A DNA stretch of 64,000 nucleotides from Actinomycetes bacterium (GTDB taxonomy: Bacteria > Actinomycetota > Acidimicrobiia > Acidimicrobiales > Acidimicrobiaceae), in assembly GCA_021823045.1 (NCBI GenBank), contig JAKAPB010000001.1, positions 1-64,000 of the forward strand, read 5' to 3'. Every line of letters starts with the position of its first letter. Position 1 is the first letter of the stretch. Positions 42,179 to 56,192 of the stretch are shown in pieces. The position numbers and the translations under genes are program-made. The notes under the pieces are model-generated. The model did not search any database and was not told the origin of the DNA. It saw only the letters and a list, made by a program, of their open reading frames with translations.

Positions 42179-42697
42179 GTGAGATCCGTCGGAGGTACCC
42201 TTGTACTGGGTGGAACCAGGTCGGGGAAGTCAAGTTTTGCAGAATCACTTTTGGCCGGACTCGGTAAGCCAGATTACCTCGCCACCTTGGGCTTTGATCC
42301 TACTGACGTTGATGCCTTGGCGAGGGTAGCTTCGCATAGGGACCGTCGTGCAAACAGCTTCGAGACTAGAGAACTTTCCGTGCCAGCGGAATTGCTCCGC
42401 TTCATCAAGGGTACTACGAAACCCTTTTTACTGGATTCGATAGGTACTTTCATCTCTTCTTCACTCAGTCGGAATGTCGATTTGGATTCCGAGTTAGTCG
42501 AAGAACTATCCCACAAAGGGCAGAAGTTCGTCGTAGTTTCTGAAGAGGTCGGCCTGAGCGTTCACCCAGAATCCAAAATTGGTCGTATTTTTATCGACCG
42601 AATGGGAGCCATAAACCAAAAATTGGCCCTTGCCTTGGATTGTGTCTATTTTGTACATGCTGGAATACCCGTCTTATTGAGGGGCACAGATGGCTGA
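42179..42697 (+). CDS. cobU: Adenosylcobinamide kinase / guanylyltransferase
   Basis: Phosphorylates adenosylcobinamide and transfers GMP to it. 172 aa. The P-loop LVLGGTRSGKSSFAE is at the N-terminus, and the SEEVGLSVHPESKIGRIF block is typical. The GTG at 42179 has GAGGAG four bases upstream and is directly after the riboswitch. It overlaps cobS by eight bases. Confidence 0.94.
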   Translation: MRSVGGTLVLGGTRSGKSSFAESLLAGLGKPDYLATLGFDPTDVDALARVASHRDRRANSFETRELSVPAELLRFIKGTTKPFLLDSIGTFISSSLSRNVDLDSELVEELSHKGQKFVVVSEEVGLSVHPESKIGRIFIDRMGAINQKLALALDCVYFVHAGIPVLLRGTDG

Positions 42698-43436
42698 GCA
42701 AGTTGATGCGCTACTGTCGTCGGTCGGCTTTCTGAGCTCATTTCCCACTAAAGCGTCGCCGTCGAAGCTAACTCCTCGCTATTTCGGGGTTGCTGGAATG
42801 CTCTTAGGACTGCTTCTGGGGTTGATATGGAGTCTCACCTCGACTTTATTTTCGCCAGCGCTAGCCGCGGTATTCGTTGTTTGCGCGGATGTTTTGCTGA
42901 CCTATGGACTGCATTATGACGCTATCGCCGATTGCGGTGACGGGCTTTTCGCACATATGAAAACTGAACGGCGGCTGGAAGTTATGAGGCAGCCAACCAT
43001 CGGGAGTTTTGGGGCTATAGCCATTTTGCTCGTCGTCCTGCTAAGGGTGACGTCTTTGGCCGAAGTAAGACCCAGCACGTTCCTCTTGATCGGACTATTA
43101 GGTATATCTCGATCCTTGATGGCGCTGGGGATCGGGAGGGGAAATTACGCCCGTCCAAACGGCGGAATGGCGAGCATCTTCCTCGGGTCCATGTCGGAGG
43201 GAGCCGACTTCTTAGTAGTTGTTCCGGTTCTGATACTTTGCGCAGCCTTAGTCGTGGTTGGCGTCGGGATCTTTGCCGGCGTAGTAGCGATAGTGGTGGC
43301 TTTTGGGACAACGGTTTACTTTTACCGACGGGGCGTTTTACTCCTTGGTGGCTTCACCGGCGACTTGTTGGGAGGCTCTGGGATCCTCTTCGAAACCGTC
43401 GCCCTTCTTGTGCTGAGTGCCAAGGCCCTGAGATGA
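42690..43436 (+). CDS. cobS: Adenosylcobinamide-GDP ribazoletransferase (cobalamin synthase)
   Basis: Membrane enzyme joining adenosylcobinamide-GDP and alpha-ribazole. 248 aa with multiple hydrophobic helices and the active-site block HYDAIADCGDGLFAHMKTERRLEVMRQ (metal-binding acidic residues), followed by PTIGSFG. Overlaps cobU and precedes cobD by about 40 bases. Confidence 0.93.
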   Translation: MAEQVDALLSSVGFLSSFPTKASPSKLTPRYFGVAGMLLGLLLGLIWSLTSTLFSPALAAVFVVCADVLLTYGLHYDAIADCGDGLFAHMKTERRLEVMRQPTIGSFGAIAILLVVLLRVTSLAEVRPSTFLLIGLLGISRSLMALGIGRGNYARPNGGMASIFLGSMSEGADFLVVVPVLILCAALVVVGVGIFAGVVAIVVAFGTTVYFYRRGVLLLGGFTGDLLGGSGILFETVALLVLSAKALR

Positions 43437-43475
43437 AGCTGATGCGAGTTGGGATGGATCTGGGATGATGTCGAG

Positions 43476-44447
43476 GTGACCAATACGAGAAATTACCGAC
43501 GAGGAGTCAAGGCTTCGAACCAAATTCTTGGGGCGGCTGCGGGCCTTTTGCTCGACCGAGTCCTCGGAGAGCCGTCAACCCGCTATCATCCAGTGGCCCT
43601 TTTCGGTCGACTCGCCGGTGGTATCGAGCCGCATTTCTGGGAAGACACGAGGCGTTCTGGAGGGTATTTCTGGACGTCACTTTTGATACCAATTTGGATT
43701 CTGGGAGAACTCTTTGAAGGTTCCTTCATCGCTACCGCAGTTTCCAGTTATCTGGCAATTGCCGAAAAGTCCCTATTTGAAGCGGCTGGTTCGGTCCATA
43801 GCTCATTGGCACTTCCAGATCTTGACTTGGCGCGAAGCGAGCTGTTGTCGTTGGTTGGAAGGGACAGGTCTCACCTGGAAGAGGACGACATAGCCCGGGC
43901 GACCGTCGAGTCGGTAGCCGAAAATAGTGTCGATGCGGTGGTGGGTGTACTTTTTTGGGGGTCACTCCTCGGGGCAAAGGGAGCGTTGGCATATCGGAGT
44001 ATCAATACCCTGGATTCGATGTTTGGGAATTTTTCGGATCGATATTCAAATTTCGGATGGACTTCAGCAAAATTGGACGACGTAGCAAATTTCATCCCGG
44101 CTCGTTTGACTACTCTGATGATCTCTTTGCTATCTCGAACTGACCTCGGGACCCTTCGGAGGACGTTTAGGCAGGCTAGACCGCATCCTTCGCCCAATGC
44201 CGGACTCGTTGAGGCGGCATACGCCGAAGCACTAGGTATTGAACTCGGCGGTGAACTGAGCTACCAAGGAGTTGGCGAGTTTCGTCCGCTAGTCGGAAAA
44301 TTGGGCAATGACGTCGTCTCGGAGGACATCCGGCAAGCCGTCTCGTTGGCTCGCAAGGTCGACTCAGTTTTCGTCACCGCACTGCTGTTATTGGGCGTCT
44401 CCATAAGGTGTTTTGCCTATTTCAAAGGGCTAGGAGAAGAGGGTTAA
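43476..44447 (+). CDS. cobD: Adenosylcobinamide-phosphate synthase (CbiB/CobD)
   Basis: Membrane protein that attaches aminopropanol (or its phosphate) to adenosylcobyric acid. Signatures: LLLDRVLGEPSTRYHPVALFG at the N-terminus, ATVESVAENSVDAVVGVLFW, and RSINTLDSMFG. The GTG at 43476 is chosen because it leaves a normal short N-terminus; a TTG at 43449 adds nine residues. The stop shares a base with the cobQ ATG. Confidence 0.92.
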   Translation: MTNTRNYRRGVKASNQILGAAAGLLLDRVLGEPSTRYHPVALFGRLAGGIEPHFWEDTRRSGGYFWTSLLIPIWILGELFEGSFIATAVSSYLAIAEKSLFEAAGSVHSSLALPDLDLARSELLSLVGRDRSHLEEDDIARATVESVAENSVDAVVGVLFWGSLLGAKGALAYRSINTLDSMFGNFSDRYSNFGWTSAKLDDVANFIPARLTTLMISLLSRTDLGTLRRTFRQARPHPSPNAGLVEAAYAEALGIELGGELSYQGVGEFRPLVGKLGNDVVSEDIRQAVSLARKVDSVFVTALLLLGVSIRCFAYFKGLGEEG

Positions 44448-45940
44448 TGCGTCCAAAAATGATCGTTGGAACCTCCTCTGATGCCGGAAAGTCGACCCTG
44501 GTGTCGGCGATATGTCGGGTACTTTCGGACAGAGGAATCTCAGTAGCCCCCTTCAAGGCTCAGAATATGGCACTAAATTCGGCGGTCACGGAGGATGGCT
44601 ATGAGATAGGTAGAGCTCAAGCGGCGCAGGCCTTTGCCGCCAGAACTACAGCGACGTACAACATGAACCCTATTCTGCTAAAGCCGGAGTCAGAACAGAG
44701 GTCGCAGTTGGTGCTTAAGGGGGAGGTGGTCGGCTCCTTTAGTGCTAAGGAGTATCAAAAACTCAAGCCCAAACTCTTTGACGAAGTACTTTCAAGCTTT
44801 CGCGAACTATCTGAGTCCTACGACTTGGTGGTGCTAGAGGGAGCTGGATCCCCGGCGGAAATCAACCTTCTCAAAGACGAACTAGTTAACTTGAAGCTGG
44901 CGAGAGAGGTGGGAGCTCGAGCGCTACTTGTTGCCGACATCGACAGGGGAGGGATGTTCGCCCACATCTTTGGAACCATTAAAATACTCCCTAATGATTT
45001 GGCCGCTTTAATCGACGGCTACATGATCAACAAGTTTCGCGGCGATTCATCTCTTCTTGAGTCCGGTATTGACCAGCTATCTGCACTTATTGACGCAAAG
45101 CCCTTTGGCCTGCTCCGTTACTTCGGCGACACGAGGTTCGATTCAGAAGATTCACTTGCCATCCCGTTTGGAAAGAGCTCAAACTCCGGAGCGCCTCTCA
45201 AGGTCGGTATCGTTGCCTTTCCCCACCTATCTAACTACACAGATTTTGATCCTCTTTTGACCGAGCCATTTGTCGAAGTTGCTTATCTCACAAAAAAGGC
45301 TGACATCCACGGGTGTGACCTCGTGGTCCTGCCAGGAACCAAGTCCACTATTGACGATCTTGCCTGGTTGAGGGCCAATTTTGATACCTCAATTCGAAGA
45401 TACGTCGACGGGGGAGGTTACCTGCTAGGGATATGCGGAGGATACCAGATGCTGGGCCACGTGATAGAGGATGGGATTGAGTCGGAGGTCAAAACCACTT
45501 CGGGCCTTGGTCTTCTAGATATTTCTACGAAGTTTGAGCGACGAAAACTGACGCTTACCAGATCTGGACGGTTGATCGACGGCGACGTCGCTATCGATGG
45601 ATATCAGATTCACAATGGAAGGGTCGTGTACAAAGGCGAGGTCGAAGGACTCTTTAGCCTCGATGAGTCTCCTGTGAGGCATCGTTTTGGCGACAATGAC
45701 GGCTCCAGCGGGCCAGAGGGTGCAATACGAGCAAATGTTTTAGGTACCACGCTGCACGGTGTTTTGGAGTCAGATGGTTTTCGAAGGTGGCTATTGAGGC
45801 TCGTCGCATCGAATAAAGACAAGGATTACTCACCGGGGCCGTCCTACTTGGACCTGAAGGAGGAGTACTACAACGGGCTCGCTGAGTGGCTCATCGCAGC
45901 CACCATGCACACAGAGATGCTCGATTGGCTCAGGAGTTAG
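44447..45940 (+). CDS. cobQ: Cobyric acid synthase
   Basis: Amidates the b, d, e and g side chains of adenosylcobyrinate diamide. 497 aa: an N-terminal P-loop domain (VGTSSDAGKSTLVSAICR, then FKAQNMALNS) and a C-terminal amidotransferase domain with the nucleophile in LGICGGYQMLG. ATG at 44447 with AGGAG upstream and a one-base overlap with cobD. Confidence 0.95.
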   Translation: MRPKMIVGTSSDAGKSTLVSAICRVLSDRGISVAPFKAQNMALNSAVTEDGYEIGRAQAAQAFAARTTATYNMNPILLKPESEQRSQLVLKGEVVGSFSAKEYQKLKPKLFDEVLSSFRELSESYDLVVLEGAGSPAEINLLKDELVNLKLAREVGARALLVADIDRGGMFAHIFGTIKILPNDLAALIDGYMINKFRGDSSLLESGIDQLSALIDAKPFGLLRYFGDTRFDSEDSLAIPFGKSSNSGAPLKVGIVAFPHLSNYTDFDPLLTEPFVEVAYLTKKADIHGCDLVVLPGTKSTIDDLAWLRANFDTSIRRYVDGGGYLLGICGGYQMLGHVIEDGIESEVKTTSGLGLLDISTKFERRKLTLTRSGRLIDGDVAIDGYQIHNGRVVYKGEVEGLFSLDESPVRHRFGDNDGSSGPEGAIRANVLGTTLHGVLESDGFRRWLLRLVASNKDKDYSPGPSYLDLKEEYYNGLAEWLIAATMHTEMLDWLRS

Positions 45941-46104
45941 CGATGCCAAGTTATAGCCCGAAAAGCCGATAATGGACAAAAACAAAATTTGCAATAAGGA
46001 TCCCTCCTGATGGGTCACTCCCTCTTTGAGCTGAACTTTTCGCACCGATGGGTATTCAATTTCAACCACGACATTTATTCAAGAGATCGACTAGATAGGT
46101 AAAT

Positions 46105-49100
46105 TTGGATTTGGACAGGATCTACTACTTCACGAACGCCGACACTGAAGTAATTACCATGCGCAGCGTCTGGGAAGGGCTTCCGGAAGACTTTCCGGAG
46201 CTAATCGTCAGGAAGACTTCTGATTATGCTTCGATAGCCGCCGAGGAGACAGCAACCGACTCTCGGACGGTAGTTGTTGCTCGACTTTTGGGTGGGCAAG
46301 ACACACAGTCTCTCGCCCAAGACATGTCTCTTTGGGCAAGGAGCATTGGAGGAGTATTTATAGCTTTTCCAGGGGAAGCTACGTTTGACGAGGATCTCGG
46401 GTTTATGTCGGAGATACCCGGAGGTTCATATAAATATGCCCTTGAGTACCTGATCAAAGGTGGCCTCGAGAACTTCACGAACTTCCTGCTCTTTCTGGCA
46501 GACACCCTCCTCGGATACGGATTTGGCTTTGAAGAACCAAAAGTCGTGCCAAATAGTGGTGTGTACTTGTCGCAAAAAAGCGGTGATCCGCTCGCTCCCA
46601 AGGCGGTAGTGGTCTTTTACCGGGCGCACCTTATATCTTCCAACACTCGATTTATTCGCGATCTAGTTGACAAGTTGGTCCTTTTGGGAATGAGCGTAGA
46701 CGCCTATTTCTGCTACTCACTTCGATCAGCCCCCAACGAAGAAGGATTGACACCCGCTAAAGAGATTCAGAGGCTCAACCCGGACGTCGTAGTTACCACG
46801 GTCCTCGCATCAGGGAGCTTTGACGATGACGAGCTCAGTTGGGATGCGGGAGAGATGTCGAAAATAGGAGTCCCAATAGTACAAGCGTTGGTATCTACGA
46901 ACTCCCAATCGAGCTGGGACGAATCCGATTTTGGACTCGGACCGATGGATGTGGCTATGAACGTCGCCATCCCCGAGTTTGACGGCCGGATCATCTCGGT
47001 GCCTTTCAGCTTCAAGGAAGTTGTCGACGATGACCAGCACTTTGGTACTGCGATTTCGGCCTACCGAACCTCGGAGGCAGGAACCTTTTCTGTGGCGGGA
47101 CTGGCGCATAGGCTCGCCCGTTTGCGGCAGAAGTCCAATCAGTCTAAAAGGGTTGCCATCGTCCTTAGCGCTTACCCAACTAGGCGGTCGAGACTAGGAA
47201 ACGCTGTCGGGCTTGATACCCCACAGAGTGCAGTCGATCTTCTCGTCGAGCTTCGACGAGCCGGATACCATACGGGAGAATTTCCCACAGATCCGGTTTT
47301 GCTCATGGAACTTCTCGGGGAACTTGTAGATTACGACTCGACCGAGGTACTCCCTCGTGGTAGATACGAGGTGACCTGGCCGACTGAGAAGTATCTGGAG
47401 GAGTTCTCGAAGATCTCAACGAAGGTAAAGGGAGAGTTAACTAAGACCTGGGGTGAGGCGCCGGGTGACGCATTTGTCGCCGATGGAATGTTCCATTTTC
47501 CGGCATTGAGGTTTGGAAACGTTATCGTAGCCATCCAACCCTCTCGTGGATTTGGGGAGAATCCGATAGCGATTTATCATTCAGCGGAGTTAGCTCCTAT
47601 GCACCATTACATCGCTTTCTACCGTTACCTTGACGTTGAGTTCCAAGCGGACGCAATCATTCACCTTGGCAAGCATGGTACCTTGGAGTGGCTTCCGGGC
47701 AAGAGTGTTGGGCTCTCTTCCGACTGCTATCCACAGCTTGCATTGGGTGATGTTCCTTTTATCTACCCCTTCGTAGTGAATGATCCTGGGGAGGGTACCC
47801 AAGCGAAGCGGCGGACCCATGCGATCATCATCGACCATATGGTTCCCCCGCTGACAAGGGCGGGAAGTTATGGTTCGACTACGCAGCTCGAAGACCTACT
47901 GGATGAGCATCAAAAACTTACCGCCCTAGATCCTTCGAAACTTCCCAGGATCAGGGAACAGATTTGGCGACTCCTCGAAGAGTGCAAGATCGATCAGGAC
48001 CTCAATTTGAACCTTCCGAGCGGGGGTTTTATAGATCCAGACTTTGATTCGATGGTATCGCATATCGATGGCTACCTTTGTGAACTTAAAGATGCCATCA
48101 TCCGTGGTGGCCTTCACATCTTGGGAAAACCTCCCGAGGGTGACCTGCTTATTGACACCGTGAGCGCAATTACTCGGGTGGCGCAAGGAAATGTGGCTTC
48201 ACTTCGGTCATTGTTGGCTAAAAGGATCGGAATTGACCCAGGATCTGCGAGCATACGGGATTCGGATTTGCTGGACCAGGCGACACAGGACCTGCTAAGG
48301 GAACTGGCCGAGCGGGACTGGCCGATAGACGGACCAGAGGAATTTACCGGGGGCGAGCTTGGCGACGTTATCAATTGGATATCTGGATCGCTAGTTCCAA
48401 GGATTAGGCAGACTACAGATGAGATCGAGTCAATAGTTCACGCGTTGTCGGGTGGGTTTGTCGAGCCTGGACCGTCGGGGGCCCCCAGCAGAGGAATGGC
48501 ACACGTGCTCCCGACGGGTAGGAATTTCTATTCGATTGATCCGAGGGCGATCCCTTCGCGTCTCTCTTATGAAGTCGGGAGAAAACTGGCCGAATCCCTA
48601 GTCGGGAGGTTCGTTGAGGACAAAGGTAGGTATCCAAAATCGGTCGGTGTGGTCATTTGGGGAACGGCGGCCATGCGGACAGGTGGAGATGACATCTCGC
48701 AAGTATTGGCACTGCTAGGGGTTCGCCCAACATGGGACCAAGACTCCTCGCGGGTCATAGGTCTCGAGGTAGTGCCACTAGCGGAGCTCGGCAGACCTAG
48801 GGTAGATGTCACCTGCCGGATATCGGGTTTTTTTCGTGACGCCTTTCCACAGTCGATCAAACTGCTCGACGAGGCGTTCGAGATGGTGGCGAAGCTGGAT
48901 GAGATTGTCGAAGCCAATCCGCTGGTTGGTGGTTTTTCAACCCCAAGGATATTTGGACCTCCTCCAAGGGCCTACGGTTCGGGGCTGCTCCCGCTATTGA
49001 TCTCGAAGGATTGGAGGGGAGATGAGGATCTGACCGAGGTATACCTGAATTGGAGCGGCTTCAGCTATACCAGGTCCGGTTTCGGTCTTCCCGCCAAAGA

Positions 49101-49653
49101 TGCCCTATCTGCGAGACTGCGAGTTACCGAAGTAGCGTCCAAGAATCAGGACAACCGTGAGCATGATATTTTCGATTCAGACGATTACATGCAAGATCAC
49201 GGCGGGATGATTGCAGCTATCCGGACCCTCTCTGAAAAGGACCCGCTGGCGTATTTTGGAGATTCATCAAGTGTTGAAATTCCTAGAGTTCGCAGTCTCG
49301 AGGAGGAGGCGGCGAGGGTCTTTAGGTCGAGGGTTGTGAATCCAAAGTGGATTTCTGCCATGATGCGCCATGGATATAAAGGTGCATTTGAGATGGCGGC
49401 GACTGCGGACTATCTCTTCGGATACCAAGCCACAGCGAGGGTGGTCAAAGACTGGATGTTCGATGCATTGACACAAAGCTATGTAGTCGATGAACAGGTA
49501 TCGGAGTTTTTCAGGCTGAACAACCCCGACGCTTTGGCATCTATTTGCGAACGGCTAATCGAGGCGAATGCGCGTGGCCTCTGGCGAGCAGCTGAAGTTG
49601 ACCTTCAGCTCCTGCGTAAAAAACTAATGGAGGTGGAAGGTTGGAAAGAGTAG
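46105..49653 (+). CDS. cobN: Cobaltochelatase CobN subunit
   Basis: Large catalytic subunit of the ATP-dependent chelatase that inserts Co2+ into hydrogenobyrinate a,c-diamide in the late-cobalt route. 1182 aa; motifs HLGKHGTLEWLPGKSVGLS and YPFVVNDPGEGTQAKRR match the CobN/ChlH family. The cobalamin neighbours favour CobN over magnesium chelatase ChlH. The start is a TTG at 46105, 164 bases after cobQ. Its end overlaps the next chelatase gene by 13 bases. Confidence 0.92.
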   Translation: MDLDRIYYFTNADTEVITMRSVWEGLPEDFPELIVRKTSDYASIAAEETATDSRTVVVARLLGGQDTQSLAQDMSLWARSIGGVFIAFPGEATFDEDLGFMSEIPGGSYKYALEYLIKGGLENFTNFLLFLADTLLGYGFGFEEPKVVPNSGVYLSQKSGDPLAPKAVVVFYRAHLISSNTRFIRDLVDKLVLLGMSVDAYFCYSLRSAPNEEGLTPAKEIQRLNPDVVVTTVLASGSFDDDELSWDAGEMSKIGVPIVQALVSTNSQSSWDESDFGLGPMDVAMNVAIPEFDGRIISVPFSFKEVVDDDQHFGTAISAYRTSEAGTFSVAGLAHRLARLRQKSNQSKRVAIVLSAYPTRRSRLGNAVGLDTPQSAVDLLVELRRAGYHTGEFPTDPVLLMELLGELVDYDSTEVLPRGRYEVTWPTEKYLEEFSKISTKVKGELTKTWGEAPGDAFVADGMFHFPALRFGNVIVAIQPSRGFGENPIAIYHSAELAPMHHYIAFYRYLDVEFQADAIIHLGKHGTLEWLPGKSVGLSSDCYPQLALGDVPFIYPFVVNDPGEGTQAKRRTHAIIIDHMVPPLTRAGSYGSTTQLEDLLDEHQKLTALDPSKLPRIREQIWRLLEECKIDQDLNLNLPSGGFIDPDFDSMVSHIDGYLCELKDAIIRGGLHILGKPPEGDLLIDTVSAITRVAQGNVASLRSLLAKRIGIDPGSASIRDSDLLDQATQDLLRELAERDWPIDGPEEFTGGELGDVINWISGSLVPRIRQTTDEIESIVHALSGGFVEPGPSGAPSRGMAHVLPTGRNFYSIDPRAIPSRLSYEVGRKLAESLVGRFVEDKGRYPKSVGVVIWGTAAMRTGGDDISQVLALLGVRPTWDQDSSRVIGLEVVPLAELGRPRVDVTCRISGFFRDAFPQSIKLLDEAFEMVAKLDEIVEANPLVGGFSTPRIFGPPPRAYGSGLLPLLISKDWRGDEDLTEVYLNWSGFSYTRSGFGLPAKDALSARLRVTEVASKNQDNREHDIFDSDDYMQDHGGMIAAIRTLSEKDPLAYFGDSSSVEIPRVRSLEEEAARVFRSRVVNPKWISAMMRHGYKGAFEMAATADYLFGYQATARVVKDWMFDALTQSYVVDEQVSEFFRLNNPDALASICERLIEANARGLWRAAEVDLQLLRKKLMEVEGWKE

Positions 49654-51605
49654 GTAGGGCTATTCGCTATCCATTCGTAGCGGTGGTCGGTCAAAGCAGA
49701 CTAAAGCTTGCGCTGCTACTTTTGGCGATCGACCCTCGAATTGGCGGTCTGTTGATAATTGGGGAGAAAGGATCGGCCAAGTCTACCCTTGCAAGAGGCG
49801 TGGCGGATCTACTTGAAGATGGAGCTCCTTTTGTCGAACTACCTGTTGGAGCTACCGAAGATCGTGTCATCGGGACGCTGGACCTCTCGGGCGTAATCAA
49901 CAATCGGAGTGAAGTTTTCAAGCCGGGCCTCTTAGTGCAAGCTAATTCGGGAGTTTTGTACGTAGACGAGGTCAACCTCTTACAGGATCACATCGTCGAC
50001 GTGATGCTGGATGCTGCGGCCTCAGGGACGGTGAGGATTGAGCGAGAAGGTTTTTCAATCGTCAGGGATGCCAGGTTTGTTCTATGCGGTTCTATGAACC
50101 CCGAAGAGGGAGAGTTGCGCCCACAGCTTCTAGATCGTTTTGGATTCGCCGTCAATGTGGATGCACTTAGCAGCGTGGAGGAGCGGGCGGAGGCGGTGAC
50201 CAGACGAGTCGAATATGAGGCTGATCCCGAGTTGTTCATAGTTAATTTCAAAGATGAAACCGATACGCTAAGGGAAAAGGTCGTAACTGCTAGAAGGTTG
50301 CTGAACGGCGAAGGTCGGTCTAGGAAGGATCTTTTGGAGTTGGCTAAGTTTGCCGCTCAGGTCTCTATCGCACACGGCGCAGAGGGTTTGCGTTCCGACT
50401 TAGCTCTGGTGCGAGGGGCGGTGGCATACGCTGCTCTCTGTGGCAGGAGTGAAGCGACCGAAGAGGATTTGATCGAAATATCCAGTCTTGCGCTGCTTCA
50501 TCGCTCTCGACGTAGCAGCGAGGATCATTCTCAAAATCATGCTCGTTCGTACCAATTCGAAGGCCAAAAGAGTGACCAACAACTTACGGGTGGAGGGTCA
50601 TCGGAAGAGCGAGGTACTTCGCTGAATTCTCCAGAGGTTTTAGATGGCCCTGGGAGGGTCCCGAGCGAGGAGGGCGGTGGGATTTCTGCCAACAACCCCC
50701 ACGGCGTAGAGGATGCCAATGCTATGGACGACTCTCTAAGTTCAGACTCCTCGGGACAAAGAGGCAGATCCGGCTCTGAAGCTGACCGACAAGAAATCGG
50801 TAATACCAGTGACATGAGCAATCCTCCAAAAGGGGAGCCTGGTCTAGCCAATGGGGATTCCCAAAGCACACTCCCAGAAACATTTCCACCGCCCGGTCGC
50901 GTAATGGTAGCCGGATCCAGGAACAGGCCAACTCAATTCGCCCCTCGGGTCGACGCTGAGAGAAAAGGCGGATCTCCTCTGGCGGTACGGGAAACCGTTG
51001 CAAACAGTTTGCGACGTTTGGCGGATGACGGCCAGCTAGTTGCTGGGACCGATATCAACTTTGCCAGCTCCGACCTGGTTTTCAAAAGGTTGCTTTTACT
51101 TGAAGAGAGGTGCGTTGTCTTCCTGGTGGACACTTCTGGATCGATGGGTTCAATAAAGCGTGTCGAAGCAGCGAAGCTAACGATAGAAAAGTTGCTCGGT
51201 GACGCCTACCTAAAGCGGCATAGCGTGGCGATGATAACCTTCCAGGGGGCGATTGCTGAGACAATTTTAATGCCGACTCGAAGCATCGAAGTAGCGAACT
51301 CTCGACTAGGTCAAATCAAGAGGGGGGGTAAGACGCCCTTACACCTGGGTCTGCGGAAAGTGGCAGAGCTTTCGAAAAGGTTGCGTGCCAAAGGGACCGA
51401 ACCATTCGTCGTCGTAATGACAGACGGTATGGTGTCAACTTCGCAGGCTGGCATTGACCCAGTTGGGGCCACACTTGAGGCTTCGAGAGAGATTGCCGAG
51501 GCAAGGATCGAAGGTATCATCGTAGATTTCGACCTAAGTGATCCAAAGGTAGGGATAGCGACTGAAGTTGCTAAGACAGCAAAACTGTCCTATGTCGCAG
51601 CTTGA
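49641..51605 (+). CDS. Chelatase AAA+ / VWA subunit (ChlI-ChlD fusion)
   Basis: 654 aa combining both accessory subunits of the chelatase. The N-terminal ChlI-like AAA+ domain has Walker A IGEKGSAKSTLARG and Walker B VLYVDEVNLL. A disordered acidic Ser/Gly/Pro linker (about 290-440) leads to a C-terminal von Willebrand A domain with the MIDAS motif VDTSGSMG. Overlap with cobN indicates that this protein, rather than CobS/CobT, powers CobN here. TTG start. Confidence 0.9.
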   Translation: MERVGRAIRYPFVAVVGQSRLKLALLLLAIDPRIGGLLIIGEKGSAKSTLARGVADLLEDGAPFVELPVGATEDRVIGTLDLSGVINNRSEVFKPGLLVQANSGVLYVDEVNLLQDHIVDVMLDAAASGTVRIEREGFSIVRDARFVLCGSMNPEEGELRPQLLDRFGFAVNVDALSSVEERAEAVTRRVEYEADPELFIVNFKDETDTLREKVVTARRLLNGEGRSRKDLLELAKFAAQVSIAHGAEGLRSDLALVRGAVAYAALCGRSEATEEDLIEISSLALLHRSRRSSEDHSQNHARSYQFEGQKSDQQLTGGGSSEERGTSLNSPEVLDGPGRVPSEEGGGISANNPHGVEDANAMDDSLSSDSSGQRGRSGSEADRQEIGNTSDMSNPPKGEPGLANGDSQSTLPETFPPPGRVMVAGSRNRPTQFAPRVDAERKGGSPLAVRETVANSLRRLADDGQLVAGTDINFASSDLVFKRLLLLEERCVVFLVDTSGSMGSIKRVEAAKLTIEKLLGDAYLKRHSVAMITFQGAIAETILMPTRSIEVANSRLGQIKRGGKTPLHLGLRKVAELSKRLRAKGTEPFVVVMTDGMVSTSQAGIDPVGATLEASREIAEARIEGIIVDFDLSDPKVGIATEVAKTAKLSYVAA

Positions 51606-51962
51606 TCCTTGGCCGACCGGGGTCGCCTGACCAATCGTGGATGGTTTTTCGCACCGGTTCTTCGTGGGAGTCAATCCCAAATAGCAAAGACCAGTGGCTT
51701 GTACTGGGCTGGAGCCAGAACGAGAGATGTTTGCTAGCGCAGCCAAAGGCGCAAAGTTTTAGAGTTACAGGTTTCAATGAAAGTTAAAAGGACTCACTGT
51801 TAGGTCGCGACTTAATGGGTCGGCAGGTTTATGGCATTTCAAGCTCACTACGAATGGGTCTAGGCAGATTCACTCCTCGGCGACCTCCAGATACGATACC
51901 AATTGGCCGATACTTTTCGGTGCCTAAGGGATTAGGTGGAGCATTCACTGGAAGGTAAGACG
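51606..51962. other. Gap after the cobalamin operon, no gene seen
   Basis: 357 bases between the chelatase gene and the Fic-like gene. Open frames on both strands are short and lack ribosome sites. No hairpin terminator or repeat stands out. Confidence 0.6.
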
Positions 51963-53456
51963 ATGGTGGCAAGTCTGTTTTTTCCTGGCGATAAGCCGCC
52001 TGCGACTATTCACGGGTTGCACAAAGCTGGTTCAATTGTGAGGATTGCTCCAGGCATCTATACCGATGAAGTATCGGATCCAGTTGCGGTAGTACTGCGG
52101 GAATGGCAGGCGATACTGGGACATATGCTGCCGAATTCTGTGGTGACAGATAGGTCCGTTCTCAGTGGTGGTCCTGACGATGGTGTTCTTTTCCTCGCGA
52201 GGGCTGCCAAGGCACGACAGATTGTGCTCCCCGGTTTAGTCGTTTCAGTGCGTCAAGGCCTTGGACCCGTTGAGGGCGATATTGCGCTGCCGGGTGGTCT
52301 CTTTCTAGCCTCTCCGCTTCGGGCGGTTTTGGACAACCTCCTTCCTAGCCGGGCTGTCAGAGGAAAACCGGCGAGAACACTGTCCGACCTTGAATTGTCA
52401 AACTTCGTGCTAGGGAAATTTGCTGGTAGTGATGGGAATCGGCTTGCTGAGTTGATGGGAGGGGTCCCTCGGCTGATTAAAGTCCTTGGACTTCATGATG
52501 ATCTGATTCCGAGAGCCGAGCTACTGCTTAAGCGGATCCTGGTCACCGATTTTAATGATGATGTCCAAGGGGTATCCTTCATGGGACCAGTCGGCGTGGG
52601 GATGCCGAATGCACTCGAGGGTCCACGGCGAGGAGTGGGAGGAAATTCAGAATCCAGTCCCAACACCGAAAGGGAGTTGTTGGATCTATTACATTCAATT
52701 TCAGAAGGGATTAGTAAACTCCAACCAGATGTTTTTGTGGTTGATGAGTCCGAGCCAAAATGGACCTATAGGCCATTTGTAGAGGCTTTCTATATGTCGG
52801 GGATTCTGGATGGAAAGACTCCTAATAGCTTGCTTTTGAAAAAGGCATTACGTTCTGTGATGTTGACGGAGGGAGGCGTAGATGATTCATTATTCATAAG
52901 GTATTATTCTTTAGTTTCAGACCGTATAGACGTGACGAGAGATATTAACACTTCTACGGAATTTATAGCTAGACTGCGGGATCTCCATTCAAAGATCCTC
53001 GGGGGGTCAATTGAGGCGTTTGCAGGAGTGTTCAAAGATGAAAGTTACGCTCCTGTAGCCGTTGCGGCAGAAAGTGGTGCTTCAATAAGCGACCTCCTGT
53101 CGATAGGATTTGAATCAATTGTAGGGTTGAACTCCAACTTAGGATTTGCGATCGGCCTCTATATTTTGATCTCTTTCATCAGGCCCTTTGAATTTGCAAA
53201 TGAGCAGGTTGCAAGTATTGCATTAAATTCAGCACTCTGTAGCGTTGGCGAGTGCAGAATAATCTTTCCGGTTGTAGACGACAAAAGTGAATTTTCAAAG
53301 TTGCTCTCGAGTCGGGGCCATATCGATTCCGTCACCTTGATAAATCGGTTTATTGCTCGACAGGAATCTACTGTGGCATCACACTACCAAGACCTCGGAC
53401 TAGCGCTAAAGGAAATTCGAGCAGATCTTGCTGAATTAGAGTCAAATCCACATTAA
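51963..53456 (+). CDS. AbiEi-like N-terminus with degenerate Fic domain
   Basis: 497 aa. The first about 150 residues (LHKAGSIVRIAPGIY, then VVTDRSVLSGGPDDG and LPGGLFLASPLRAVLDNL) match the winged-helix/AbiEi-like module that precedes many Fic proteins. The C-terminal half follows the Fic layout: a segment like YRPFVEAFY, then a helical block, then the catalytic region. There the HPFxxGNGRxxR motif reads RPFEFANEQVAS (from Arg407): His is Arg, and the phosphate-loop Gly, Gly and Arg are Ala, Glu and Gln. So it is likely inactive as an AMP transferase. The ATG at 51963 has GGAAGG seven bases upstream; a GTG at 51936 is the longer option. Confidence 0.75.
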   Translation: MVASLFFPGDKPPATIHGLHKAGSIVRIAPGIYTDEVSDPVAVVLREWQAILGHMLPNSVVTDRSVLSGGPDDGVLFLARAAKARQIVLPGLVVSVRQGLGPVEGDIALPGGLFLASPLRAVLDNLLPSRAVRGKPARTLSDLELSNFVLGKFAGSDGNRLAELMGGVPRLIKVLGLHDDLIPRAELLLKRILVTDFNDDVQGVSFMGPVGVGMPNALEGPRRGVGGNSESSPNTERELLDLLHSISEGISKLQPDVFVVDESEPKWTYRPFVEAFYMSGILDGKTPNSLLLKKALRSVMLTEGGVDDSLFIRYYSLVSDRIDVTRDINTSTEFIARLRDLHSKILGGSIEAFAGVFKDESYAPVAVAAESGASISDLLSIGFESIVGLNSNLGFAIGLYILISFIRPFEFANEQVASIALNSALCSVGECRIIFPVVDDKSEFSKLLSSRGHIDSVTLINRFIARQESTVASHYQDLGLALKEIRADLAELESNPH

Positions 53457-54171
53457 TAGTTCGCCATGTGGCCGGAGAGATCCACCTTTTGGCAAGCTAA
53501 GCAGTTATAAATTCCAGATTTAGGATGGCATAAAGTTTTTCCCGGTTACATCGTGTGTTAGCCAAATAATTTACGCAAATGCCCTTGAAGGGAGCCAGAG
53601 TATTAGGTAACATAGCGACTTTTATGGATAATTATTTGGGTTGCTAGCTCTGAACATTGTTTCTAGGTGTCGTGATCTTGTTAGTTGATCTGAGATTTGT
53701 ACACAGAACTCTGTTTGTGATCCGTAGCGTGACTTGGAATGTGTATGGAGTTCAAACGGTATGAGCATCCATCGAGCTTGAATGTATAACGGCGAGCGCG
53801 CGTCAGTAATTGGTTTCGTTGTCATGACGGTAATACTGCGTGGTCTCGCCACCTTAGGAGGGAGGAGTGATTTCAACTCGTGATAATGACTAACTGTTTT
53901 CAAAGTTTTGCTTTACGGGCCATTAGGTAATTACTGAGCTTTGCTATTCACTATCGGTGGGTTTATGTACCGTTTTCTATGGCGGGTGGTGAGCGCCGGC
54001 AATTGCGACTTGGTACGGTGAGGCGCTGGGGAGGGTTGCGACCCCGTCACAAAAGGGTGTTTGAGCAAGACGTATTAGACCAGCGAGAGTGAGCATTGTC
54101 ATCCCTAGGCACACGTCCTCAAAACGGCGTAAAAGTGATATCTTGGCGGTAAATGACCCGCGCTAATAAGC
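53457..54171. other. AT-rich gene-poor stretch
   Basis: About 715 bases with no supported gene. A 93-codon frame on the minus strand begins at TTG without a ribosome site and has no recognisable features. No tRNA or clear hairpin is seen. It may be degraded DNA linked to the IS21 fragment that follows. Confidence 0.55.
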
Positions 54172-54246
54172 AAGGAGGGACAATTAATGACCGAGGAATT
54201 CGGGTTGGTGCTGACGCAGCTCCTCCAACCATGCCGGGGCCTTTAA
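54172..54246 (+). pseudogene. Orphan gene start cut off by the IS21 fragment
   Basis: AAGGAGGG at 54172-54179 lies seven bases before an ATG at 54187, the best ribosome site in this region. The frame encodes only MTEEFGLVLTQLLQPCRGL and then stops inside DNA that belongs, on the other strand, to the istA fragment. The simplest reading is the first codons of a gene truncated by insertion or deletion. Confidence 0.4.
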
Positions 54247-54429
54247 GCGTCTTGCCTCATCTTCCAGCGGCCAGCTGAGACCAGCTGCTTTAGCTCTCTT
54301 GGCCAAATCCGCCACGGTGGTAAATGGCATCGAAAGTGACGAGGCGGTTTGGCGGAGGCTCAAGCCCTCAGAATAGTGCAAGCGAAGTACACCACGATTC
54401 TTACGCATGGTCGAATGGGGACGGGGCAT
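54184..54429 (-). pseudogene. IS21-family transposase IstA, N-terminal fragment
   Basis: The 81-codon frame starts with MPRPHSTMRKNRGVLRLHYS and continues into a helix-turn-helix (GLSLRQTASSLSMPFTTVADL) ending AGLSWPL, the typical IstA N-terminus. The family protein is about 500 aa; here everything after residue about 60 is lost and the remainder reads into unrelated sequence. GAGGAGG precedes the ATG at 54429. No istB is present, so the element is dead. Confidence 0.8.
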
Positions 54430-54518
54430 CGGTACCTCCTCTGATTGTGGATAATCAAAGAAGTGTTGCCGATGCCCTGCCACTCACGCAAATGTCACAA
54501 AGCCGACCCCGGCTGAGG

Positions 54519-54575
54519 TGTACGAAAACCGCGGAACGGGTGTACGAATTCAATCGGAACGGCTGTACGAAAACC
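54519..54575. mobile_element. Remnant IS21 end with repeated tgtacgaa boxes
   Basis: Three boxes begin tgtacgaa: tgtacgaaaacc at 54519 and 54564 and tgtacgaattc at 54541, spaced 22 and 23 bases. IS21-family ends carry multiple repeated transposase-binding boxes of this sort, and the array lies upstream of the istA start as expected for the left end. I see no matching right end. Confidence 0.6.
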
Positions 54576-55292
54576 ATCGGGATACTCGCACAGCTCGTAT
54601 TTATCGGCTACTTGAGGTCACAACCACCTGCGTCTAAGTCTGCCGCCGCATGTGCACGGATGGGCCCTTTGGATCAAAAACCCAGACGTAGATTGTCAAG
54701 TGGCTATAGCTCTAAATTGGGCCACCGAGCCTGGATACTTGCTCCATCGCGAAGTGGCCGAGTTGACCCAGCACTCGGTGCTTACCGGCGCAAGTTTCTG
54801 GCGCTTTTAAGCGATCCGCAAGTCGGGACTAGTTTGATCCAGCATCGTGACCGTTTTAGTTGAATTGGGGCTGGTTACGTTGGGGCTGCGTTGGCCGCAC
54901 AATCGAGGCGTGTTGAGGTGGCCGAGTGAGAATCAAGTCCAAGACGGAACCTTGGAACAGGTGCATCTAAATGAGCGGACTCACTGCCAGCCACTCAGAT
55001 GCAACGGTGACAAGCTGAAGGCGAGGAGTGGCGAGAGGTCTTCGTGAAGTTTAATTTACAGACGGGGGACGCTTTATATCGCTGATAGCTGAGCAAGTTA
55101 TTTGCTGCCATTTAACGGGTAAATGCAGGCGATTTGTAGCGTCAAAGGGCCCAGCGAAGCGAGTTTGCTCGCATTGACCAACAAACAAGTGGCTACACCG
55201 TTTGAAATAGTGCTACGACTGGAGTAAGAATAATCTGGTGTCGGGGCTTGGCCTCCTGTCGGAAGTCTTTGGTTGTGCATTGGAGTTCGGTG
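54576..55292. other. Gene-poor stretch beyond the IS remnant
   Basis: About 715 bases. A plus-strand frame ending at 54863 and another at 54847-55047 have no ribosome sites or family features and cross the IS fragment, so I do not call them. Nothing else is recognisable. Confidence 0.5.
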
Positions 55293-56192
55293 GTGAAAAG
55301 GCATAGAGGCGCTGTAATTGAGGGATTCGGCCGCTTAGTGACACGCGGGCTACTGGCATTTTGTGCCACCTCTGCTCTATTGGCAGGCACTGGAAGTACG
55401 GGCCTACCTTCAGGTCGACTTCTGGGTTCGAGGACTTCGTACGTGAAAGTTGCCAAAGGGAACGACCCCGGTCAGATCATAGTCAATATAGGTGGGGGTG
55501 GAGAAACGGTCAAGGGTGGAAAGTCAAATTCCAGTTCGTCAAGGAACGTAAGTTTAGGATCGCCGGGAGGGGCTTTGGTAGGGGGTCCTACCCAACCGGC
55601 TCCTTTGAATCCTTGCGTTCTTGATACGGCCGCACAGAAGGATCCATTTGGGTCGGATCTCCTCGGTCTCGCCGCCGCTGAGGTGGTAAGTAGGTACTTG
55701 AGCAACGTTGTTGGAATCTGCAAGTCTGGAGGGGGGAGCAAGACGAACCTCCCCACCCCTTCCGAAGTTGCAGACAGCGAGTGGTCGACACAGCTGGTCA
55801 AGCAGCTGCCGATTCCATTGCCGACGATCCCCCCTGGGTACGGAGTTGTCGGCATAACCTCTTATTTGCTGACCGGTGACGCTACGCACTGCTCCTTATC
55901 GAGTTCGAGCGCCCTCGGCGAACTGACCATATCTGCGAAGTCCAGTTATGAAGTGTCATTTGATGGCGGCGATCAGTACTCTGGGCCATTCCAAACTAGC
56001 GGCGCACCTTGGCCGCTAGGAGGAATTGATCACATGTGGCTTAATCCGGGAGCGCGCTCGGTGGTGGTGGTTCAAAATTGGACCGGAACCTGGTATTTGG
56101 ATGGTCAATCGGGCCAGCTGCCAACTCTTCAAACAAGAGGTGAAATCGCGAACTATGTAGTTTTAGGACTAGTCGCGCTTAGGACATCTTGA
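55293..56192 (+). CDS. Secreted protein of unknown function
   Basis: 299 aa from the GTG at 55293, chosen because GGAG lies seven bases upstream and it gives a proper signal sequence: basic KRHRG, then the hydrophobic RGLLAFCATSALLAG. A Gly/Ser-rich linker follows, then two cysteines (LNPCVLDTAA and NVVGICKSG) and a beta-rich C-terminal domain (TSYLLTGDATHCSLS, SYEVSFDGGDQ, SVVVVQNWTGTWYLDGQ). Family not recognised. Longer starts in the same frame (55248) are possible. Confidence 0.6.
   Translation: MKRHRGAVIEGFGRLVTRGLLAFCATSALLAGTGSTGLPSGRLLGSRTSYVKVAKGNDPGQIIVNIGGGGETVKGGKSNSSSSRNVSLGSPGGALVGGPTQPAPLNPCVLDTAAQKDPFGSDLLGLAAAEVVSRYLSNVVGICKSGGGSKTNLPTPSEVADSEWSTQLVKQLPIPLPTIPPGYGVVGITSYLLTGDATHCSLSSSSALGELTISAKSSYEVSFDGGDQYSGPFQTSGAPWPLGGIDHMWLNPGARSVVVVQNWTGTWYLDGQSGQLPTLQTRGEIANYVVLGLVALRTS

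What the first reader, a model, noticed from the sequence alone, without database searches (positions are those of the whole stretch)
51963..53456. AbiEi-like protein with a destroyed Fic active site
The C-terminal half keeps the Fic layout, but the catalytic HPFxxGNGRxxR motif is RPFEFANEQVAS. The catalytic His is Arg and three of the phosphate-binding residues are changed, while the flanking helices look conserved and the frame is intact for nearly 500 codons. An intact but dead enzyme fused to an antitoxin-like winged helix suggests a repurposed role, such as a binding or regulatory protein. It sits alone in a gene-poor patch next to an IS21 remnant.
Basis: partly seen in the sequence, partly recalled or inferred. 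Interest (0 to 1): 0.75.

Follow-up and report, generated by a model that had tools for sequence, protein, structure and literature searches.

The report
Dead Fic enzyme kept by selection
A bacterial protein descended from a protein-modifying enzyme appears to have lost the parts needed for the reaction, yet natural selection still preserves it, so it probably works by binding something rather than by catalysis.

Summary
ORF 51963-53456 (+) encodes a 497-aa AbiEi-like/Fic fusion with RPFEFANEQVAS where relatives have HPFxDGNGRxxR. Of 72 named loci, 65 have HPFxDGNGRxxR, 2 HPYxDGNGRxxR, 2 end before the motif and 3 are degenerate like the window. Degenerate rows form one clade. Four of five held genomes of the genus carry the gene in one slot after cobalamin genes; in the fifth the slot is empty. 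Catalytic His, both glycines and both arginines of the motif, and the inhibitory Ser/Glu, are replaced in 8 of 8 rows. The Fic half changed far more than the AbiEi half on the stem branch but is now under purifying selection (dN/dS 0.20-0.28). The model shows Fic and AbiEi folds, resting on intact relatives. So this is a retained pseudo-Fic, not a decaying gene. Most likely it acts by binding; the partner is unknown. Non-catalytic Fic domains have precedents (BepC, AvrB).

The parts
51963..53456 (+). Gene for the degenerate AbiEi-Fic protein (497 aa plus stop)
   Evidence: ATG present in 4 genomes
51963..52541 (+). Residues 1-193: AbiEi-like domain (one helix plus wing, then the AbiEi C-terminal core)
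52542..52664 (+). Residues 194-234: variable, low-confidence linker
   Evidence: pLDDT under 50 at 196-231; highest dN/dS point estimate of the three parts in both species pairs, with wide intervals
52665..53453 (+). Residues 235-497: predicted Fic fold without the key catalytic residues
52761..52814 (+). Residues 267-284 (WTYRPFVEAFYMSGILDG): remodelled former inhibitory-helix segment; holds the most invariant 12 residues of the Fic half
53181..53216 (+). Residues 407-418 (RPFEFANEQVAS): former catalytic motif
51886..51922 (+). Conserved non-coding 37-base block 41-77 bases before the start codon, with a short CCGA-N6-TCGG inverted repeat; candidate promoter or operator
   Evidence: 27 of 37 columns identical in 4 species; elsewhere upstream the best 37-base match of window and L026 is 12-18
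42179..51605 (+). Cobalamin cluster (CobU, CobS, CobD/CbiB, CobB/CobQ-like, CobN, AAA-VWA chelatase-type subunit) directly upstream; same order beside the gene in G005, G003 and G004

Best explanation
The gene descends from a stand-alone, self-inhibited AbiEi-Fic protein, probably an AMP transferase. Shown by sequence: in one clade, limited so far to this genus, the Fic half has lost the catalytic His, both glycines and both arginines of the motif, and the inhibitory Ser and Glu, with a burst of change on the stem; it is under purifying selection now, and the AbiEi-like half is conserved. Inferred: the protein no longer transfers AMP and works by binding. The Fic shell, with the remodelled former inhibitory helix near the former active-site loop, would be an interaction surface, and the AbiEi-like half the other docking or sensing module. 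It would act as a stoichiometric regulator or adaptor, made from its own conserved promoter next to the cobalamin genes. The partner (protein, small ligand or DNA) is not known.
For: Motif intact in 67 of 72 named loci, degenerate in 3, not reached in 2. One clade in both half-trees, support 100. His407, Gly412, Gly414, Arg415 and Arg418 in 57 of 57 other rows and 0 of 8 degenerate rows. 14 of 16 family-conserved positions kept in residues 1-150, 26 of 77 in residues 251-488. Fic-half dN/dS 0.28 (bootstrap 95% interval 0.19-0.42) and 0.20 (0.13-0.29) in two species pairs. No internal stop in the four genome copies. Same slot in 4 of 5 genomes of the genus, empty in G002. Fic and AbiEi folds in the model. 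Conserved upstream block. Precedent: BepC's Fic domain acts without catalysis (passages of PMC7842960).
Against: No experiment. The Fic fold in the model depends on intact relatives; degenerate rows alone gave pLDDT 31.3. Loss of AMP transfer is inferred from residues: Pro408, Phe409 and Asn413 remain, and position 411 is still acidic (Glu) in 5 of 8 rows, Phe in 3; PMC4454073 mentions residual activity after His-to-Ala in IbpA (passage). Within the clade the Fic half evolves about twice as fast as the AbiEi half, and its dN/dS exceeds the 0.05 of an intact pair, whose dS is near saturation, so some relaxation remains. Nothing identifies a partner.
Confidence: 0.75

Rival explanations
1. It is still an enzyme with altered chemistry: the invariant Ala-Asn-Glu-Gln and the remodelled helix form a new active site, as some Fic-fold proteins use other donors or mechanisms.
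For: A412, N413, E414, Q415 and S418 are fixed in 8 of 8 rows, and an acidic residue remains at 411 in 5 of 8, as one might expect of a working pocket.
Against: His, both Gly and both Arg of the motif are lost in 8 of 8, and the region I take for the flap is degraded. The most invariant stretch is the former inhibitory helix, not the motif loop. Position 407 is Arg or Ala.
Confidence: 0.12
2. It is a DNA-binding autorepressor, perhaps also acting on the cobalamin cluster: the AbiEi-like half binds the conserved block before the gene and the dead Fic half only dimerises.
For: Conserved 37-base block with a CCGA-N6-TCGG repeat before the gene in 4 species. AbiEi and the Fic-HTH protein CccR repress their own promoters (passages of PMC7319586 and PMC9755527). 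The cobalamin neighbours are shared.
Against: Only 12 residues precede the single helix before the wing, where AbiEi has three helices. Residues 1-40 carry net charge -1 to +1 in degenerate rows against a median of +3 in the others; residues 41-150 do not differ clearly. Outside the gene's own site, pattern matches in 8 genomes number 19 against 14 for the reversed control; of 11 such sites in the four carriers, 8 were examined and 8 lie in reading frames. The repeat is short.
Confidence: 0.2
3. It neutralises active Fic toxins, or an AbiEii toxin, of the same cell by pairing with them (for Fic, as Fic1 does for Fic2 in Campylobacter fetus).
For: G004 has an intact AbiEi-Fic paralogue; G001, G003 and G004 have other Fic-domain proteins and AbiEii matches, that of G001 below cut-off. 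Precedent in passages of PMC5651007.
Against: G005, 84% complete, has the dead gene but no Pfam-detectable Fic or AbiEii protein. None of nine neighbouring proteins scanned is Fic or AbiEii. An intact close paralogue was found in 1 of 4 carriers.
Confidence: 0.08
4. It is a decaying gene that has merely not broken yet.
For: Fic-half dN/dS is above that of neighbours such as CobN and the ThrS-like gene (0.02-0.08), and most family-conserved Fic positions are changed.
Against: Open frames of 491-497 aa in four genomes plus P0006, dN/dS intervals well below 1, one genomic slot and fixed new residues.
Confidence: 0.03

Closest known systems
Fic/Doc family PF02661 (class II: (S/T)xxxE(G/N) helix before the core)
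   Same: Predicted fold of residues 235-497; homology to intact AbiEi-Fic proteins of class II type
   Different: Catalytic His, Gly, Arg and inhibitory Ser/Glu replaced; no Pfam hit
AbiEi antitoxins (type IV toxin-antitoxin AbiE; 6y8q)
   Different: No room for helices 1 and 2 of the winged helix; fused to Fic; none of nine neighbouring proteins scanned is AbiEii
BepC of Bartonella (Fic domain acting without catalysis)
   Same: A Fic domain that works by binding (passages of PMC7842960)
   Different: Keeps HxFxKGNGRxxR, is an injected effector, has no AbiEi part
AvrB and Doc clade D2 (Qx[F/Y])
   Same: Fic-fold proteins without the canonical motif (passages of PMC4454073)
   Different: AvrB is a plant effector; [quoted passage not shown]
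CccR of Yersinia (Fic plus HTH autorepressor)
   Same: A Fic domain joined to a regulatory module (passages of PMC9755527)
   Different: Catalytically active; HTH domain at the C terminus

Membership tests
Fic enzymes (AMP transferases) | HxFx(D/E)GN(G/K)R motif with catalytic His | tested here: not met
   His407, Gly412, Gly414, Arg415 absent in 8 of 8 degenerate rows; Phe409, Asn413 kept, Glu411 in 5 of 8
Fic enzymes (AMP transferases) | Fic fold | tested here: met
Fic enzymes (AMP transferases) | AMP-transfer activity | not testable with these tools
   Needs a biochemical assay
Class II Fic | (S/T)xxxE(G/N) inhibitory helix before the core | tested here: not met
   Ser278 and Glu282 replaced in 8 of 8 rows; a one-residue register shift would read S-GIL-DG in the window, Glu replaced by Asp
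AbiEi antitoxin | Complete N-terminal winged helix (three helices plus sheet) | tested here: not met
   One helix (13-21) before the wing and only 12 residues before it; AbiEi_4 aligned from profile position 24 or later in each match seen
AbiEi antitoxin | AbiEi C-terminal core fold | tested here: met
AbiE type IV toxin-antitoxin | AbiEii toxin gene adjacent | tested here: not met
   Nine neighbouring proteins scanned, none AbiEii; AbiEii matches lie elsewhere in 4 of 5 genomes of the genus, 3 of 5 over cut-off
Pseudoenzyme | Key catalytic residues lost in a clade under purifying selection | tested here: met
Pseudoenzyme | Measured absence of the ancestral activity | not testable with these tools

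The most novel reading that the evidence does not exclude
A stand-alone AbiEi-Fic AMP transferase was converted in one burst into a non-catalytic regulator dedicated to the adjacent cobalamin cluster, with the former inhibitory helix and nucleotide pocket rebuilt into a new ligand-sensing or partner-binding site.
Probability: 0.15. Interest if true: 0.7.

Novelty: new variant of a known kind. Interest (0 to 1): 0.5.

Why it matters
The non-catalytic or motif-less Fic domains met in the papers seen here are few, and several are injected effectors. This clade offers a clean before-and-after: intact relatives in several phyla, a loss placed within one genus, one genomic slot, an empty-slot sister, and a rebuilt segment under selection. 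It makes the question of how a modifying enzyme becomes a binding protein testable outside pathogens. The intact AbiEi-Fic family itself may be little described: no paper on that fusion appeared in the listings (5 papers) or (10 listed of 6,401).

Tried and rejected
Regulon search: the repeat pattern was sought in 8 genomes with up to one mismatch. A variant site shared by all four carriers looked promising, but lies inside a reading frame that I take for nadD from its GGTFDPIHFGHL stretch (name recalled), so it is not a likely regulatory site. Three of the 11 non-own sites in carriers were not examined.

Control fold: AlphaFold2 on the 8 degenerate rows alone gave mean pLDDT 31.3; it neither supports nor refutes. 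The AbiEi part could not be folded by itself (both jobs used).

The second protein search, with a 16-row alignment, found the same 7 proteins; both searches scored only about 8,000 candidates and missed known intact relatives, so they are not exhaustive. PADLOC, NCBIfam and PDB sequence searches with the window protein gave nothing relevant; residues 1-193 alone gave no PDB sequence hit at E up to 10. Promoter scan of 51560-52060: 0 found.

Recurrent neighbours of non-degenerate loci: the largest shared neighbour group covered 3 of 69 loci, by BLASTP within 2.5 kb, many loci having short flanks. Pseudogene decay rejected on dN/dS.

Rows dropped: G018's weak hit (E 0.0053) lies in an ORF that looks like a different protein; G002's match is a 231-aa AbiEi-like ORF without a Fic part. 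Seven minus-strand loci were read in the wrong orientation and redone. Of 64 loci listed, five (L033, L055, L060, L068, L080) were left out of alignment A5 with no special reason, L033, L060, L068 and L080 have HPF motifs and L055 HPY. Linker dN/dS is uncertain.

Full report
What is there. The frame 51963-53456 (+) is a single open reading frame of 497 aa. The ATG at 51963 is present in all four genomes compared. Scanned alone, the protein gives no accepted family: AbiEi_4 at E 0.051 under its cut-off, nothing in NCBIfam or PADLOC. Relatives resolve it. A search of about 5.8 billion proteins, of which only 7,997 candidates were scored, gave 7 matches: one near-identical to the window (P0002), four with the same degenerate motif (P0003-P0006), one 362-aa protein that ends before the motif (P0007), and P0008, whose HPFDDGNGRVAR aligns column for column with RPFEFANEQVAS.

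The family. A scan of GTDB species genomes gave 72 named loci, by their titles from Actinomycetota, Acidobacteriota, Verrucomicrobiota, Pseudomonadota, Chlamydiota and one Thermodesulfobacteriota. By motif: 65 HPFxDGNGRxxR, 2 HPYxDGNGRxxR, 3 degenerate, 2 cut off before it. Of the 69 others, 68 carry SN(F/Y)IEG and one SNFIDG, so the ancestor was most likely a class II, self-inhibited Fic protein. No neighbour recurs in more than 3 of 69 loci, so it looks like a stand-alone gene.

What changed. In a 65-row alignment (8 degenerate, 57 others), His407, Gly412, Gly414, Arg415 and Arg418 are invariant in 57 of 57 and replaced in 8 of 8. Pro408, Phe409 and Asn413 are kept in 8 of 8. Asp411 (57 of 57) is Glu in 5 of 8, which the general motif allows, and Phe in 3 of 8, the window included. 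The inhibitory Ser278 and Glu282 are replaced in 8 of 8. Positions 362, 365 and 369, in what I take for the flap (placed from recall of the family), are mostly lost. Of positions conserved in at least 85% of the others, 14 of 16 are kept in residues 1-150 but 26 of 77 in residues 251-488. The 8 rows hold three close pairs (92.9-99.2% identical), so they stand for 5 lineages. Matched apart from the AbiEi half, 8 of 8 C-terminal halves hit the profile of the other rows at E 1.3e-17 to 6.4e-24, and 0 of 200 shuffles did.

History. Trees of each half put the 8 rows on one side of a branch with support 100, which fits a single origin without proving it. The branch leading to them is about 1.0 change per column in the AbiEi half and about 8.9 in the Fic half; I regard the latter as saturated, meaning only 'very large'. 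Inside the clade the Fic half evolves about twice as fast as the AbiEi half (0.37 against 0.16 from window to L027; 1.21 against 0.59 to P0005); between intact L029 and L032 it is slower (0.28 against 0.47). A burst followed by renewed constraint fits a change of function. The gene sits in the same slot in G001, G003, G004 and G005. In G002, the fifth held genome of the genus, the flanking genes adjoin without it. These are MAGs, 76-95% complete. G004 also holds an intact paralogue elsewhere.

Selection. dN/dS for the Fic half is 0.28 (0.19-0.42) for window against G005 and 0.20 (0.13-0.29) for G003 against G004; for residues 1-193 it is 0.22 and 0.23. Neighbours range from 0.02 to 0.25. An intact pair, L017 and L006, gave 0.05 overall with dS near saturation. 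So the gene is constrained, though less than most neighbours and probably less than intact members. The most invariant 12 residues of the Fic half are PFVEAFYMSGIL, the rebuilt inhibitory-helix segment, rather than the motif loop.

The AbiEi part. PMC7319586 (passages) describes AbiEi as a three-helix winged N-terminal domain plus a C-terminal domain that suffices for antitoxicity. Here one helix precedes the wing, after only 12 residues. In the 9 proteins where an AbiEi_4 match was shown in full, it begins at profile position 24 or later of 49, intact members included. The 1-40 stretch is less basic in degenerate rows than in the others; 41-150 does not differ clearly. 'Winged helix' is therefore half right, and DNA binding is a hypothesis.

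Surroundings. Upstream lies a cobalamin cluster: CobU, CobS, CobD/CbiB, a CobB/CobQ-like amidotransferase, CobN and an AAA-VWA subunit of chelatase type. Between the last of these and the gene is a 357-base gap holding a 37-base block (51886-51922) with 27 of 37 columns identical in four species; other upstream stretches that do not overlap it reach 12-18 of 37 between window and L026. The pattern CCGATAYTTTTCGG matches exactly once per carrier genome before this gene, plus once inside a reading frame in G005. Six intact loci inspected have no CGATA in the 170 bases before the start or match. The block may be a promoter, an operator or both; a sigma-70 scan found nothing. Names such as FabI, CysS and ThrS for genes further downstream are recalled.

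Reading. The gene is best read as a pseudo-Fic: enzyme lost, fold and surface kept for binding. Precedents are BepC, whose Fic domain works without catalysis (PMC7842960, passages), AvrB and the Qx[F/Y] Doc clade (PMC4454073, passages), and Fic2 of Campylobacter fetus, degenerate at the active site yet toxic and bound by Fic1 (PMC5651007, passages), which warns that a degenerate motif need not mean an inert protein. None of the papers seen describes this architecture; the searches were made, in an open-licence library, seen as listings and passages. The antitoxin model is weakened by G005, which has the gene but no Pfam-detectable Fic or AbiEii protein at 84% completeness.

Noticed in passing
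window 53457-55247: Gene-poor stretch with a 99-aa minus-strand ORF (54184-54483) that looks like a transposase start (only a weak sigma-70 region 4 match, E 0.0056); the overlapping plus-strand ORF 54324-54863 has no match in the three sister regions. IS21 identity not tested.
   Followed up: partly
window 55248-56192: 314-aa protein without a Pfam family, matched in 31 of 45 genomes of the genus, family and order.
   Followed up: no
L085:1900-3387: An Acidobacteria AbiEi-Fic with intact HPFxDGNGR but SNFIDG instead of SNFIEG in the inhibitory helix.
   Followed up: no
L049, L091, L095: AbiEi-Fic loci with intact motif whose frame is split in two, possibly frameshifts or assembly errors.
   Followed up: no
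L010 (G085:C3) and P0007: AbiEi-Fic proteins that end before the catalytic motif (372 and 362 aa): truncations or assembly errors.
   Followed up: no
G001-G004: Other Fic-domain and AbiEii-like proteins elsewhere in genomes of the genus; none of either found in G005.
   Followed up: no
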